NCBI RefSeq assembly: GCF_003846445.2
Contig: NZ_CP030139.2
Coordinates: 124,001-188,000, forward strand
Reading direction: 5' to 3'
Length of the DNA stretch: 64,000 nt
Source of the DNA: Synechococcus elongatus PCC 11801
GTDB taxonomy: Bacteria; Cyanobacteriota; Cyanobacteriia; Synechococcales; Synechococcaceae
The position numbers and the translations under genes are program-made. Position 1 is the first letter of the stretch. Each line of letters starts with the position of its first letter. Under the pieces are notes generated by a model that was not told the DNA's origin, ran no database searches, and saw nothing but the letters and a program-made list of their open reading frames with translations. Of this stretch, positions 32,811 to 44,589 are shown in pieces.

Positions 32811-32967
32811 AAATTTTAGACAGGGATCTCGCAACTGTGTCAATTTGAGCGATCGCGGATCGCTGTCCTGCTGTTGCTATACCCGAGAACAGCACCAGTC
32901 CGACTGAATCGCCACCATCCATCGACATGCGGTCGCATCTTAATCAAATCCGAAAGATGATCCTGCC

Positions 32968-33017
32968 GTATCCCGAACTACAGAAGTCGACTCTAGGCGA
33001 TTTCTATAGTCCTTTCA
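32968..33017 (+). promoter_or_regulatory. NtcA-activated (class II) promoter of the ATP-grasp operon
   Basis: GTA (32968-32970), eight bases, TAC (32979-32981), a 23-base spacer, then TATAGT (33005-33010), matching the -10 consensus TAN3T. The predicted start is A at 33017, 25 bases before the GTG start of the ATP-grasp gene. The centre of the NtcA site falls at about -42.5, normal for class II activation. Confidence 0.7.
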
Positions 33018-33041
33018 TGACATTTACGGGGTGAGACGGGC

Positions 33042-34511
33042 GTGCTCTTTCAAAGCTACGATCCGGGGGACTTCTACGACGAGCTGTTCCTTGCTGCTGG
33101 ACAACCACGGCCTGAAGCAGAGCTTCTAGTGCGCAAGGTGGATTCTCTACCGGTTGAAGAAATCCAGCGTCGGCAGCAACTTGCCCAAAACTTCCTGATG
33201 AAAATGGGTGCCACCTTTAATGTCTATGGTGCAGAAGGCGGCATTGAGCGCATTATTCCCTTTGATATTATTCCGCGCTTAATGAATGCTACTGAATGGT
33301 GGCCCTTAGAGCGAGGCTTAAAGCAGCGAATTACAGCGCTTAACTGCTTTCTACAAGATGTATATAACGACCAAAAAATTCTCAAGGATCGGGTGATTCC
33401 TGAGGAGTTAATTCTTTCGGCAAATGGTTTTCTTAAACCCTGTATTGGCCTAAAGCCACCCCATGGAATTTGGTGCCATATTGCTGGCATTGATATGGTG
33501 CGCGATCGCGATGGTGCTTGGTACGTTCTTGAAGATAATGTCCGCTGTCCCTCTGGTGTTTCCTATTTCTTGGAAAACCGCCAAGTGATGAAGCGAACCT
33601 TCCCTGAGGTGTTCAACCGAGGTGGGGTTTTACCGGTTGATGAATATCCGGGACATCTGCTAGATACGCTGCTCCATTTAGCGCCGGATCAAGTTGATAA
33701 TCCAACGGTTGTTGTCCTCAGTCCTGGCATCTACAATTCAGCCTATTTTGAACATGCCTATCTCGCCCAGAAAATGGGTGCAGAGTTAGTTGAAGGTCGG
33801 GATTTAGTCATTGCTGATGGCTATTTACAAATGCGGACAACCCGTGGACTGAAGCGGGTGGATGTCATTTATCGGCGGATTGATGATGACTTTATTGACC
33901 CACTTGCATTCCGACCAGATTCGCTCTTGGGTATTCCGGGCTTGCTGGAAGTCTATCGCCAGGGGCGTGTGGCGATCGCCAATGCCTTGGGGACAGGAGT
34001 TGCTGACGATAAGGTGATCTACACCTATGTACCGGCGATGATTCGTTATTACCTCGGTGAAGATCCGATTTTGGATAACGTACCGACTTATCTCTGTTGG
34101 GAAGAAGACCAGCGGGCTTATGTCCTGGATCACCTCGATGAGCTCGTGGTCAAAGCAGCCGGTGAGTCCGGAGGCTACGGCATGTTAATTGGTTCGCAGG
34201 CCAGTGAAGAAGAGCGTCAAAAATTTGCTCGCTTAATTCAGGAAAATCCGCGTAACTACATTGCCCAGAAGACTCTGAGCTTGTCGCGATCGCCCACATT
34301 AATTGATGGTGAGCTAGTCGGCTGTCATGTTGATCTACGGCCTTATATTCTCTGTGGCGAAACGATCAATGTAACCCCTGGCGGCTTTACAAGAGTTGCC
34401 ATGCGGAAAGGGTCATTGGTTGTGAATTCCTCTCAAGGAGGCGGCAGCAAAGATACTTGGGTATTGACTGATGCCGGAGATTTAAATTCTACCCAAGTTC
34501 AAGTGCAATAA
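33042..34511 (+). CDS. Circularly permuted ATP-grasp ligase of the Anbu module
   Basis: A 489-residue protein of the circularly permuted ATP-grasp group (DUF404/DUF407). Conserved blocks are LEDNVRCPSGVSYFLENR, VVLSPGIYNSAYFEHAYLAQ, DVIYRRIDDDFIDPLAF, GVADDKVIYTYVP and VVKAAGESGGYGML. ATP-grasp enzymes join a carboxylate to an amine; this group has been predicted to make peptide or amide bonds as part of a module with alpha-E, transglutaminase and Anbu genes. The substrate is unknown. It starts at GTG 33042 behind GGGGTGAG. The alpha-E gene follows after 19 bp. Confidence 0.93.
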   Translation: MLFQSYDPGDFYDELFLAAGQPRPEAELLVRKVDSLPVEEIQRRQQLAQNFLMKMGATFNVYGAEGGIERIIPFDIIPRLMNATEWWPLERGLKQRITALNCFLQDVYNDQKILKDRVIPEELILSANGFLKPCIGLKPPHGIWCHIAGIDMVRDRDGAWYVLEDNVRCPSGVSYFLENRQVMKRTFPEVFNRGGVLPVDEYPGHLLDTLLHLAPDQVDNPTVVVLSPGIYNSAYFEHAYLAQKMGAELVEGRDLVIADGYLQMRTTRGLKRVDVIYRRIDDDFIDPLAFRPDSLLGIPGLLEVYRQGRVAIANALGTGVADDKVIYTYVPAMIRYYLGEDPILDNVPTYLCWEEDQRAYVLDHLDELVVKAAGESGGYGMLIGSQASEEERQKFARLIQENPRNYIAQKTLSLSRSPTLIDGELVGCHVDLRPYILCGETINVTPGGFTRVAMRKGSLVVNSSQGGGSKDTWVLTDAGDLNSTQVQVQ

Positions 34512-37222: not shown

Positions 37223-37271
37223 GTATTCGCAGCTACGAATTAAAAGTCAGTCCCGACCTAGCTTTGGATGT
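37223..37271 (+). promoter_or_regulatory. NtcA-activated (class II) promoter of the ParB-like gene
   Basis: GTA (37223-37225), eight bases, TAC (37234-37236), exactly 22 bases, then TAGCTT (37259-37264), a perfect GTA-N8-TAC-N22-TAN3T match. The predicted start is 37271, which leaves a 24-base leader with GAGGG before ATG 37295. The site centre falls at -41.5. Confidence 0.75.
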
Positions 37272-37294
37272 TAAGCACTTTGAGGGCTAACGCG

Positions 37295-37798
37295 ATGCCC
37301 ATACTGACCGCCCCCACCTGCTGGTTGCCCAGCGAGCAGGAATATGAGCGCTTTCGCCAAAGCCTCCCCTATCCCGAATGTGATGAACAGTTTCGGTTCT
37401 ATCGCCGGGTCTGGAGTGTTGCTAAGGCGAAGTTTTTGATTGCTCAAGGTCAGGTTGCCTGCCTGCGGAATCACATCCATGTGCCCGCCATGGCGCGCTT
37501 TGAGGGCATCGACTATCCCCATCCTGAACAACCCAGTCCCTTCCGCGACAAGAACCGGCTGGCGCAGGGACGTTCCATCAATGACCTACGGATCGATCGC
37601 GCGCTCAAAGGCCTGGAGCAATTTGACCTCAGTCGGCCTTTGATTGTCGCCCAAGCACGTCAGGAGCATCCGGAAACCGTGTTACCGGTTTTGATCGACG
37701 GGGGACATCGTTTGCGCTACGCCTTTCTGTCTCGCATTTCGCATTTGTCGGCTTATCTCTTGACGCCAGAACAAACCCAGTGGATTGAGCTGCCCTAG
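37295..37798 (+). CDS. ParB/sulfiredoxin-fold-like protein next to Anbu
   Basis: A 167-residue protein. The C-terminal half contains LPVLIDGGHRLRYAFLSRIS, resembling the DGxHR nucleotide-binding motif of ParB-N/sulfiredoxin-like folds, preceded by INDLRIDRALKGLEQFDLSRP. The N-terminal 80 residues are aromatic and unassigned. ATG 37295 has GAGGG at the right distance and fits the predicted NtcA-dependent start at 37271; ATG 37268 would lie upstream of the transcript start. Function unknown. I infer membership in the nitrogen-regulated Anbu region from the promoter and position. Confidence 0.78.
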   Translation: MPILTAPTCWLPSEQEYERFRQSLPYPECDEQFRFYRRVWSVAKAKFLIAQGQVACLRNHIHVPAMARFEGIDYPHPEQPSPFRDKNRLAQGRSINDLRIDRALKGLEQFDLSRPLIVAQARQEHPETVLPVLIDGGHRLRYAFLSRISHLSAYLLTPEQTQWIELP

Positions 37799-41696: not shown

Positions 41697-41833
41697 TCAG
41701 TCATCGCCAGCTCTGCGATCGCAGTTAAATCCCATCGTCTTAACCCCTTCTGAATCTAAGCCTGCTATAGGTCGAAAAGGGTGTGATGCTCAGCGAGTAC
41801 CACGCCTAGCTGTTGCTGATTGGAGATGCTGTC

Positions 41834-42229
41834 ATGCCTCGTATTCGCCCTGCCGAAATTGTGGAAGCTTGGCAGAAGCATGGGGAACCCCTGTTGGTGC
41901 CTGCAGGGTCCGTCATCTTCAGCGCAGAGGAAGAAGGCAATACGATGTATGGGCTGTTAGAAGGAGAAGTCGTTCTTAAACGAGGCGATCAAGAGCTTGA
42001 GCGGATTTCGGCTGGGGATGTCTTTGGTGAAGGCGCGATCGCACAAGATCAGCACCAACGGTTTTCCACCGCGATTGCTGCAACGGATTGCAAACTGGCG
42101 ACCCTTGATCGTGAGCGCTTCCTCTTTCTGATCCACAATTCGCCTGTCTTTGCCCTCGATGTGATCGCCAGCCTTAGTACACGGCTGCGGGCGATCAAAG
42201 GAAACTTTGACACGAACTCAGGGCAGTAG
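41834..42229 (+). CDS. Single-domain cyclic-nucleotide-binding (CRP-type) protein
   Basis: A 131-residue protein consisting of one cNMP-binding domain: VPAGSVIFSAEEEGNTMYGL, then DVFGEGAIAQDQHQRFSTAI (the phosphate-binding cassette region) and a final hydrophobic helix. There is no DNA-binding helix-turn-helix, so it acts through partners or as a sensor. Ligand (cAMP, cGMP or none) cannot be decided; the usual Arg of the cassette is replaced by Gln/His/Gln-Arg. Start ATG 41834 behind GGAG. Confidence 0.85.
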   Translation: MPRIRPAEIVEAWQKHGEPLLVPAGSVIFSAEEEGNTMYGLLEGEVVLKRGDQELERISAGDVFGEGAIAQDQHQRFSTAIAATDCKLATLDRERFLFLIHNSPVFALDVIASLSTRLRAIKGNFDTNSGQ

Positions 42230-42420
42230 CGCCAGCCTGAATCAAGCCTTAGTTGCGACTTGATCGAGCATCTATCAGTCCAACCCAGACAATGCTTTCC
42301 TCCTCTCAACTCCTCTCCCGATACAAAACGGAGAGCGGGAGTTGGGGGATCAGGAAGGTCGCAGCGATCGCTGACAATTTTGTTCTGTCTCGATTGCTGC
42401 TCGCATTTCAGCAATTCAGG

Positions 42421-42451
42421 TCAAACAAAAAGGCCAGCCTGTGCTGACCTT
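42421..42451 (-). terminator. Rho-independent terminator (minus strand)
   Basis: On the minus strand AAGGTCAGC pairs with GCTGGCCTT (9-bp stem, one mismatch, 4-base loop ACAG), followed by TTTTTGTTTG. It can end the candidate sRNA and read-through from the NFACT gene. Confidence 0.85.
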
Positions 42452-42526
42452 AGCTGATTGAATGAAGTTGATACAGGCTAGTAGCTGTTCTGCAGTCCCA
42501 ATCCGCAGACAACCCCTGTAAAGCTT
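42421..42526 (-). ncRNA. Candidate NtcA-dependent small RNA, about 106 nt
   Basis: No gene lies between the cNMP-protein end (42229) and the NFACT end (42604). On the minus strand an NtcA-type promoter predicts a start at A 42526. The RNA would form an outer stem TACAGG/CCTGTA (plus coordinates 42515-42520 with 42472-42477) enclosing TCTGC/GCAGA (42505-42509 with 42489-42493), then an unpaired stretch of about 20 bases, and end in the terminator at 42421-42451. The architecture is that of a regulatory small RNA. The known NtcA-activated sRNA NsiR4 is a possible relative, but I could not compare sequences. Confidence 0.5.
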
Positions 42527-42532
42527 GGGAGT

Positions 42533-42574
42533 ACCCTTATGGTTCAAGTGTAACAAAAATGTAATCGTGGCTAC
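42533..42574 (-). promoter_or_regulatory. NtcA-type promoter of the candidate small RNA
   Basis: GTA-N8-TAC at 42561-42574. On the minus strand the -10 hexamer AAGGGT (42538-42533) keeps the conserved A and T of TAN3T. The predicted start A 42526 puts the site centre at -41.5. Two TTACA direct repeats with 11-base periodicity (42549-42564, minus strand) overlap it and resemble, with one extra base, an HLR1 box. Confidence 0.5.
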
Positions 42575-42603
42575 GTTTTCAGCCCATAGAGATTTAGGAA
42601 TAA

Positions 42604-44358
42604 TTACTTAGCGGTTGATAACGCTAGGTTATCGGTGAGTTGCGATCGCCGCTGTTGGGGTTGTGCCCAAACTACCCGCTCTTGTCGGTAGAGCACCATG
42701 CCCGGATGGGCTCCCTTGGGCTTCCAGACATTACGCGGTTCAGTCCAAACGACGGGGACTTGATCCGCTTGAGCTGCTCGGCTGTGGAGCGCTGCGAGAT
42801 CGGCGCTGAACTGGAGGTCAGCCGGATCTGGGCGATCGCCTGCGGGTAAGCGCAGCAGGACATGACTGCCGGGAATTTCTTGGGCGTGAAACCAGAGGTC
42901 GTAATCTGTGGCGCTTTGGAAGGTGAGAATTTCGTTCTGGCGATTGTTGCGCCCGACCCAAACCTCATAGCCGCTGGGGCTTTGGTAACGCAGAAAATCA
43001 GGCTGCGATCGTGTCGGTCGAGGGCGATCAGTTTTGTAGGGCCAGTAGCCCTGTTGCGCCAGCTCCTCACGAATCTCCTGCAAGGCGAGCCAGTCAGCGC
43101 GGGTTTGAGCTGTTTGCAGGGGAGCTAAGGCCGCCGCAATGCTGTCGAGGTAGCGGAGTTCGGCCTCTACTTCCGCCAGCAGGGGTAAAACCGCCTGGCG
43201 CGATCGCTTGGCTTTTTGGTGGCGACGATAGAAACGCTGAGCATTTTGCACAGCATTCAAAGCCGGATCGAGCTGGAGCTGCTGGGGTTCACCCGTCTCA
43301 AAGTCCGGCAAACTCAGGGACTCTAGTCCGGGCTGCCACTGGTCTAAAGAAGCCATCAAGAGATCGCCCTGCTGTCGCCAGCGATCGGCATCTTCAGCGG
43401 CATCTAGGCGGCCCTGAAAGTCCTGTTGTTTTTGCTGTAGCTTCTGCTGTTGTTGTTGCAATCGTTGCGAGAGTTGCTGGCGCAGTTGCTGAAACTGTTG
43501 CGAAAGCAGTTGGCGATCGTAGTAAGTAGCAATCACCGCGTTGACGCTATCGGCAGAGTCTGGCCCTGTGGGCAACAGGCGATAGCCCGACTCCTGCAAC
43601 TGCGGCTGAAATGCTGTTGTGCCCTGCAAGCCTCGCAGCCAGTCTTGCCAAGCGCTATGCAACTGCTGCCATCCTGTCGGGGCGATCGCGGCTGTATTCT
43701 GCTGTGGATCCAAGTCTGCCTGTCGGCAGAGCTGCTGCACTAGGCGACTACTGAGACCGCGATAGCACTGGATTAACTGGCGATCGAGGCGTCCCGGGAC
43801 CAACTGCAGGCGATCGCGCCAGCGTTCAAAAGGTTCATCCAGATTGGGAATCTGTGTCGTTAGCGCCGGCGGCCATTCGTAGGGTTCGCCCGTCCGTACG
43901 GTTCGTAACCGCGATTGGCGATCGCTAACTTGATGTGCCACCGTCACAATTTCGCCATCGGCATTGAGCAGGACGAGGTTGCTGTATTTGCCCATCACTT
44001 CCAGCAGCAGTTGAAAGCGCGGCGGATCGCCAGGGCGATCGCCAAAAGAGAGGGCAACAATTCGCTCCCAAGGCTGCGGTAGTTGCAAGTCAATCAGGGC
44101 AAACCCCTTCAACACTGCTTGGAGCTGCTGGCTGAGGGTAAAGGTATCGGGATCGCGAGGCGGCGGCGTATCTAAATGAAGTCGTGCGGCTTCAGGGTGC
44201 CACGACAGCAACAGCCAAGGGCGATCACTGAAGGTGCGTAAACCCAAGGAAAGGCTATGGCGATCGCGTTGATAGACCTGTTCTAGCCGAGCCGGCACAA
44301 CGGCTGTTTGGAGTTCCCGGCAGACCGCGACCAACGTGGTGTAATCGACAGGTTGCAT
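42604..44358 (-). CDS. NFACT / RqcH-like ribosome quality-control protein
   Basis: A 584-residue protein: NFACT-N domain (MQPVDYTTLVAVCRELQTAV), two helix-hairpin-helix segments, a long glutamine-rich coiled coil (residues about 290-350) and the C-terminal NFACT-R domain (GYEVWVGRNNRQNEILTF, DLWFHAQEIPGSHVLLRL). RqcH proteins bind obstructed 50S subunits and add alanine tails. The DR pair important in Bacillus RqcH appears here as Glu-Arg (WERIVALSF). I start at ATG 44358; the frame opens further upstream at 44487. Older annotations call such proteins fibronectin-binding. Confidence 0.88.
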   Translation of the reverse strand: MQPVDYTTLVAVCRELQTAVVPARLEQVYQRDRHSLSLGLRTFSDRPWLLLSWHPEAARLHLDTPPPRDPDTFTLSQQLQAVLKGFALIDLQLPQPWERIVALSFGDRPGDPPRFQLLLEVMGKYSNLVLLNADGEIVTVAHQVSDRQSRLRTVRTGEPYEWPPALTTQIPNLDEPFERWRDRLQLVPGRLDRQLIQCYRGLSSRLVQQLCRQADLDPQQNTAAIAPTGWQQLHSAWQDWLRGLQGTTAFQPQLQESGYRLLPTGPDSADSVNAVIATYYDRQLLSQQFQQLRQQLSQRLQQQQQKLQQKQQDFQGRLDAAEDADRWRQQGDLLMASLDQWQPGLESLSLPDFETGEPQQLQLDPALNAVQNAQRFYRRHQKAKRSRQAVLPLLAEVEAELRYLDSIAAALAPLQTAQTRADWLALQEIREELAQQGYWPYKTDRPRPTRSQPDFLRYQSPSGYEVWVGRNNRQNEILTFQSATDYDLWFHAQEIPGSHVLLRLPAGDRPDPADLQFSADLAALHSRAAQADQVPVVWTEPRNVWKPKGAHPGMVLYRQERVVWAQPQQRRSQLTDNLALSTAK

Positions 44359-44589
44359 GGGACTTCGGCAGGCAGACTGTTGCCAGCCTATCAGGCCAGT
44401 GAGAAGCTCCGCTTCAGTTGTGTCTAGCTGATTGTCGGCTGCTCCCCAGCGCTGTGCCTGTTGTGAGAATGTTGTGAATCCAGTCATGCTGACTCCAGCA
44501 CAAGCCCAAGTGCATGACCGGAACGCCAGTTAAAGTGCGATCGCGTTGGAATCAGGACTTGTTGCCCAACAAACTGGTATTAGGCGTGG

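What the first reader, a model, noticed from the sequence alone, without database searches (positions are those of the whole stretch)
42421..42574. Candidate NtcA-dependent small RNA on the minus strand
A GTA-N8-TAC site (42561-42574), a -10-like AAGGGT at the correct distance, an A at the predicted +1 (42526, site centre at -41.5), two nested stems, an unpaired stretch and a rho-independent terminator with a T-run all follow in order in a gene-free spacer. The architecture is what an sRNA gene such as the NtcA-activated NsiR4 would show. Caveat: a bare GTA-N8-TAC is expected about once per 4 kb, the -10 lacks the first T, and the terminator could simply serve the NFACT gene.
Basis: partly seen in the sequence, partly recalled or inferred. 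Interest (0 to 1): 0.7.

Follow-up and report, generated by a model that had tools for sequence, protein, structure and literature searches.

The report
Conserved small RNA gene behind NFACT
Behind the NFACT gene of a freshwater cyanobacterium close to Synechococcus elongatus lies a stretch that looks like a real, lineage-specific small RNA gene, but the claim that the nitrogen regulator NtcA switches it on is only weakly supported, because the best promoter next to the NtcA-type site points the other way.

Summary
The site is rarer than stated: 151 in 2.8 Mb, one per about 18.6 kb. A sister species keeps the segment at 88.9% identity, against 58.5% at four-fold sites of the adjacent NFACT gene. 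All 29 predicted base pairs form in both species; the five changed pairs use G-U wobbles that work only in minus-strand RNA, and chance retention of the hairpin is about 0.5-0.9%. This supports a minus-strand structured RNA. No homologue was found outside the genus, no Rfam family matches, and no small protein is conserved. NtcA activation is less secure. The minus-strand -10 matches TATAAT at 2 of 6 positions and is not TAN3T. On the plus strand the same palindrome faces AATAAT (GATAAT in the sister), 5 of 6, at spacing 24, pointing antisense into NFACT. The box could activate the sRNA, repress it, or drive an antisense transcript. NsiR4 membership is unsupported. A second, better NtcA-type sRNA gene turned up in both genomes. 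Verdict: a probable new sRNA of a known kind; regulator and targets unproven.

The parts
42561..42574 (.). GTA-N8-TAC palindrome (NtcA-type site), usable in both directions
   Evidence: 14/14 bases and the surrounding 24-nt block identical in the sister species
42533..42538 (-). AAGGGT, weak -10-like hexamer at 22 nt from the site (A2 and T6 only; 2 of 6 to TATAAT)
   Evidence: sits in a 22-nt block identical in the sister species
42547..42552 (-). TACACT, alternative -10 of TAN3T type; would start transcription near 42540 with the NtcA-type box overlapping the -35 region (repressor geometry)
   Evidence: sequence, conserved in the sister; role inferred
42599..42604 (+). AATAAT (GATAAT in the sister), plus-strand -10 at 24 nt from the same palindrome; predicted start A at 42610, antisense to the NFACT 3' end
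42423..42526 (-). Predicted small RNA, about 104 nt (5' end uncertain: 42526 or about 42540)
42472..42520 (-). Two-level hairpin; 11 substitutions between species, all 17 consensus pairs kept
42454..42477 (-). CCTGTATCAACTTCATTCAATCAG: identical in both species; the first six bases close the hairpin, the rest is mostly open; candidate pairing region for targets
   Evidence: function inferred
42423..42451 (-). Rho-independent terminator (9-bp stem, T5GT3); stem one pair longer in the sister
42604..44487 (-). NFACT (RqcH/Tae2-type) protein gene upstream of the sRNA
   Evidence: PF05833 E 1e-128, PF05670

Best explanation
42526 (or about 42540) to 42423 on the minus strand is a genuine, lineage-specific small RNA gene in the spacer behind NFACT. 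It makes an RNA of about 104-118 nt: a stable two-level hairpin, a conserved open stretch (UCAACUUCAUUCAAUCAG) and a rho-independent terminator. Most likely it is a trans-acting sRNA that pairs through the open stretch with mRNAs (inferred). Its promoter most likely involves the conserved GTA-N8-TAC box, so nitrogen control by NtcA is plausible; whether NtcA activates or represses it is not settled. Shown here: conservation, strand-specific structure, terminator, no homologue found elsewhere. Inferred: transcription, NtcA binding, targets.
For: The sister genome G001 keeps 160 of 180 bases between the NFACT stop and the terminator, against 168 of 287 (58.5%) at four-fold sites of NFACT. Four spacers of a neighbouring syntenic region have 77-89%, the highest being a promoter-bearing divergent spacer. 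Two blocks are perfect: 24 nt around the NtcA-type box and 22 nt over the -10/+1. Both species fold alike. All 29 consensus pairs hold in both minus-strand RNAs, while the plus-strand RNA would break 5 and 4 of them. Retention of the hairpin by chance is 0.5-0.9% when each species' own fold is used. The 24-nt run containing the open stretch is unchanged. In G001 the downstream neighbour differs, and the conserved block ends at the terminator.
Against: Only two species are available, so covariation is thin. No transcript data could be read. The block is contiguous with the NFACT stop codon, so it could be a conserved 3' UTR. The minus-strand -10 is poor. No convincing mRNA target was found. No homologue outside the genus.
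Confidence: 0.6

Rival explanations
1. Class II NtcA activation of the minus-strand sRNA exactly: NtcA at -41.5, -10 AAGGGT, start at 42526. (A sub-case of the best explanation.)
For: Exact geometry; box, -10 and +1 identical in both species. A second NtcA-type sRNA gene in both genomes has the same layout with TACGGT/TAAGGT at 22 nt.
Against: No TAN3T on this strand at 20-24 nt and only 2 of 6 bases of TATAAT. The spacer is conserved as a whole, so box conservation alone does not single out NtcA.
Confidence: 0.35
2. The NtcA-type box drives a plus-strand transcript starting at 42610, antisense to the NFACT 3' end; the minus-strand RNA, if any, is made otherwise.
For: AATAAT, and GATAAT in the sister, at 24 nt from the palindrome, with an A at the predicted start. 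Hexamers matching TATAAT at 5 or more of 6 positions occur at 0.09% of window positions.
Against: Spacing is 2 nt above the usual 22. The structural constraint lies on the minus strand. The spacer is AT-richer than the window, which raises the chance of such a hexamer.
Confidence: 0.3
3. The segment is only the 3' UTR and terminator of NFACT, perhaps processed to a 3'-UTR-derived RNA.
For: The conserved block runs straight on from the NFACT stop and holds one strong terminator.
Against: A simple terminator needs about 30 nt, not 180 conserved nt with an NtcA-type box and a second conserved hairpin.
Confidence: 0.25
4. NtcA represses the sRNA: promoter with -10 TACACT (42552-42547), start near 42540, box overlapping the -35 region.
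For: TACACT is TAN3T and conserved. NtcA-repressed promoters such as rbcL and gor have the box downstream of the -35 (PMC3898017).
Against: No recognisable -35; TACACT could be chance.
Confidence: 0.15
5. A short protein is encoded in the segment.
For: One frame stays open through most of the segment in both species.
Against: In that frame most codon changes are non-synonymous (read), and indels shift its end. No conserved ATG start.
Confidence: 0.03

Closest known systems
NsiR4 (NtcA-activated sRNA of Synechocystis 6803 and Nostoc 7120)
   Same: Short RNA gene with a perfect GTA-N8-TAC centred at -41.5 of the (here predicted) start (NsiR4 features as described in PMC6316151).
   Different: No homologue outside one genus, although NsiR4 is reported from at least 38 genomes; poor -10; no supported pairing with gifA. 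The NsiR4 sequence itself was not available for direct alignment.
Second NtcA-type sRNA gene found here (G000:C1:1021410-1021531; G001:C1:173134-173256)
   Same: Same layout: GTA-N8-TAC, 22 nt, -10, short RNA, terminator-like palindrome.
   Different: Better -10 (TACGGT/TAAGGT); half-sites kept while N8 varies; shorter RNA (about 70 nt) of unrelated sequence; different neighbours.
Known S. elongatus sRNAs PsrR1, Yfr1, Sye_sRNA1, Sye_sRNA3
   Same: Intergenic sRNAs of the same organism group.
   Different: Different neighbours or positions as reported (PMC6091082, PMC6202907; mapping to this genome is by estimate only); Rfam models give no match here.

Membership tests
NtcA class II promoter | GTA-N8-TAC centred at about -41.5 | tested here: inconclusive
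   Site present and spacing fits, but -41.5 is relative to a predicted, unmapped start
NtcA class II promoter | -10 box TAN3T (PMC3898017) | tested here: not met
   AAGGGT; no TAN3T at 20-24 nt on the minus strand
NtcA class II promoter | NtcA binding and induction by nitrogen limitation | not testable with these tools
   needs EMSA, ChIP or expression data
NsiR4 | Sequence homology to the NsiR4 family, widespread in cyanobacteria | tested here: inconclusive
   No homologue outside the genus in 291 genomes by blastn and 390 by covariance model, which argues against membership; the NsiR4 sequence was not on hand, and Rfam gave no hit
NsiR4 | Pairing with the gifA 5' UTR | tested here: not met
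   duplex energy to the gifA leader reached by 92 of 500 shuffles; gifA-like second genes worse
Rho-independently terminated intergenic sRNA | Conserved structured RNA with terminator in a spacer | tested here: met
Rho-independently terminated intergenic sRNA | Own transcription start | not testable with these tools
   TSS tables of PMC6091082 and PMC3219970 are in supplements that could not be opened

The most novel reading that the evidence does not exclude
A single NtcA palindrome serves two divergent promoters: a lineage-specific sRNA on one strand and an RNA antisense to the 3' end of NFACT (a ribosome-quality-control factor) on the other, tying nitrogen status to NFACT expression and to a private sRNA regulon of S. 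elongatus.
Probability: 0.12. Interest if true: 0.6.

Novelty: new member of a known kind. Interest (0 to 1): 0.42.

Why it matters
S. elongatus is a model for nitrogen control, but the papers read here describe no NtcA-linked sRNA in it. A conserved candidate, with a second better one elsewhere in the genome, gives two concrete genes to test for a post-transcriptional arm of the NtcA regulon there.

Tried and rejected
Rfam at gathering and relaxed thresholds: only chance matches. Homologues outside the genus: short blastn matches without context; covariance hits of 20-30 bits were mostly terminator stems without an NtcA box. GTA-N8-TAC within 400 nt behind NFACT in other cyanobacteria: 11 of 49 loci had one or more, with no shared core sequence. 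Targets: the complement of the open stretch with G-U allowed and up to 3 mismatches gave 21 matches in the window genome (reversed-pattern control 23) and 23 in G001 (control 10); the two matches seen in both were antisense to a psbE-like gene or inside a reading frame. gifA leader pairing not significant. NsiR4 by promoter pattern in 16 cyanobacteria: no clear common family. Small protein: rejected.

Full report
Setting. The window lies in a 2.80-Mb cyanobacterial genome (G000). The only other member of its family held, G001, has a chromosome of 2,696,255 bp, the length I recall for Synechococcus elongatus PCC 6301, so the window is from a close relative of S. elongatus (the strain name is inference). 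The segment lies between the NFACT gene (42604-44487, minus strand; PF05833, PF05670) and a convergent gene for a 138-aa cNMP-binding-domain protein (41813-42229, plus strand).

Observation. Still, a lone site in a spacer is not in itself improbable.

Conservation. In G001 the region from the NFACT stop to the terminator is 160/180 identical, while four-fold degenerate sites of NFACT are 168/287 identical. In a syntenic stretch nearby, overall identity is 81% and four spacers lie at 77%, 78%, 86% (36 nt) and 89% (a divergent spacer with its own NtcA-type box). The sRNA region is thus as conserved as a promoter-rich spacer and far above neutral. Beyond the terminator the two genomes are not syntenic, and the conserved block ends at the T-run.

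Structure and strand. Both sequences fold into the same two-level hairpin, open stretch and terminator (z -2.9 and -2.4). All 29 consensus pairs form in both. Five pairs changed, each with a G-U pair in one of the two species; this is a pair in minus-strand RNA but a C-A mismatch in plus-strand RNA. With the structure taken from one species alone, the chance of retaining that many hairpin pairs is 0.5% to 0.9%. With only two sequences this is evidence, not proof, but it points to the minus strand. The 24-nt run CCTGTATCAACTTCATTCAATCAG (42477-42454) is unchanged while the hairpin arms vary, the usual pattern of a pairing region beside a scaffold stem (inference).

Promoter. Canonical NtcA-activated promoters have the box at about -41.5 and a TAN3T -10 (PMC3898017). 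On the minus strand the hexamer at 22 nt is AAGGGT in both species. It has the A and final T but not the first T, and matches TATAAT at 2 of 6. On the plus strand the same palindrome is followed at 24 nt by AATAAT (GATAAT in G001), 5 of 6; such hexamers occupy 0.09% of window positions. This would start an RNA at A42610, antisense to the NFACT 3' end. A third possibility is the conserved TACACT at 42552-42547, for which the box would lie in a repressing position, as PMC3898017 describes for rbcL and gor. The data do not choose among these.

Relatives and known families. No Rfam match. blastn in 291 and a covariance model in 390 genomes of the class gave no credible homologue outside the genus. 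NsiR4 is reported from at least 38 genomes with a perfect NtcA site in all cases (PMC6316151), so this RNA does not look like a member, though it could work like one. Pairing with the gifA leader is not above shuffles. The NsiR4 sequence itself could not be obtained, so homology was tested only indirectly.

A second case. A search for box, TAN3T -10 and A-run in the two genomes gave G001:C1:173136-173253, whose orthologue is G000:C1:1021409-1021527. There the half-sites are kept while N8 varies, the -10 is TACGGT or TAAGGT at 22 nt, and the palindromic stem shows paired changes. It lies between a PilZ-domain cellulose-synthase-like gene and a coiled-coil protein gene. It too has no credible homologue outside the genus. 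It is the stronger candidate for an NtcA-activated sRNA, and shows that the layout exists in this lineage.

Verdict. A conserved sRNA gene is likely (about 0.6). NtcA activation of it in the form proposed is about one in three. It is a new member of a known kind, of moderate interest to specialists and cheap to test from existing transcriptome tables.

Noticed in passing
G000:C1:1021410-1021531 (L139, L193) and G001:C1:173134-173256 (L137): Second sRNA-like gene with GTA-N8-TAC, 22-nt spacing, -10 TACGGT/TAAGGT and a long palindromic stem with paired changes; conserved in both genomes, not found elsewhere.
   Followed up: partly
window 32929-33041: NtcA-type box GTATCCCGAACTAC (32968-32981) with TATAGT at 23 nt, upstream of a circularly permuted ATP-grasp gene (33042-34511); the spacer is 89% identical in the sister species. 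Looks like a canonical NtcA promoter.
   Followed up: partly
window 37223-37236: GTATTCGCAGCTAC with TAGCTT at 22 nt, just upstream of a 176-aa reading frame at 37268-37798; another possible NtcA promoter.
   Followed up: no
window 1-64000: Seven GTA-N8-TAC sites against 2.4 expected from shuffles (1 of 100 shuffles reaches 7).
   Followed up: no
window 42293-42360: Long G/C-rich inverted repeat (CTCCTCTCAACTCCTCTCCCG ... CGGGAGTTGGGGGA) behind the cNMP-binding protein gene, without a T-run.
   Followed up: no
G000:C1:1053729-1053929 (L189) and G000:C1:2297646-2297825 (L191): Two gifA-like genes in the window genome; only one match was found in G001. A GTA-N8-TAC lies about 71 bases upstream of the matched gifA frame in L189.
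   Followed up: no
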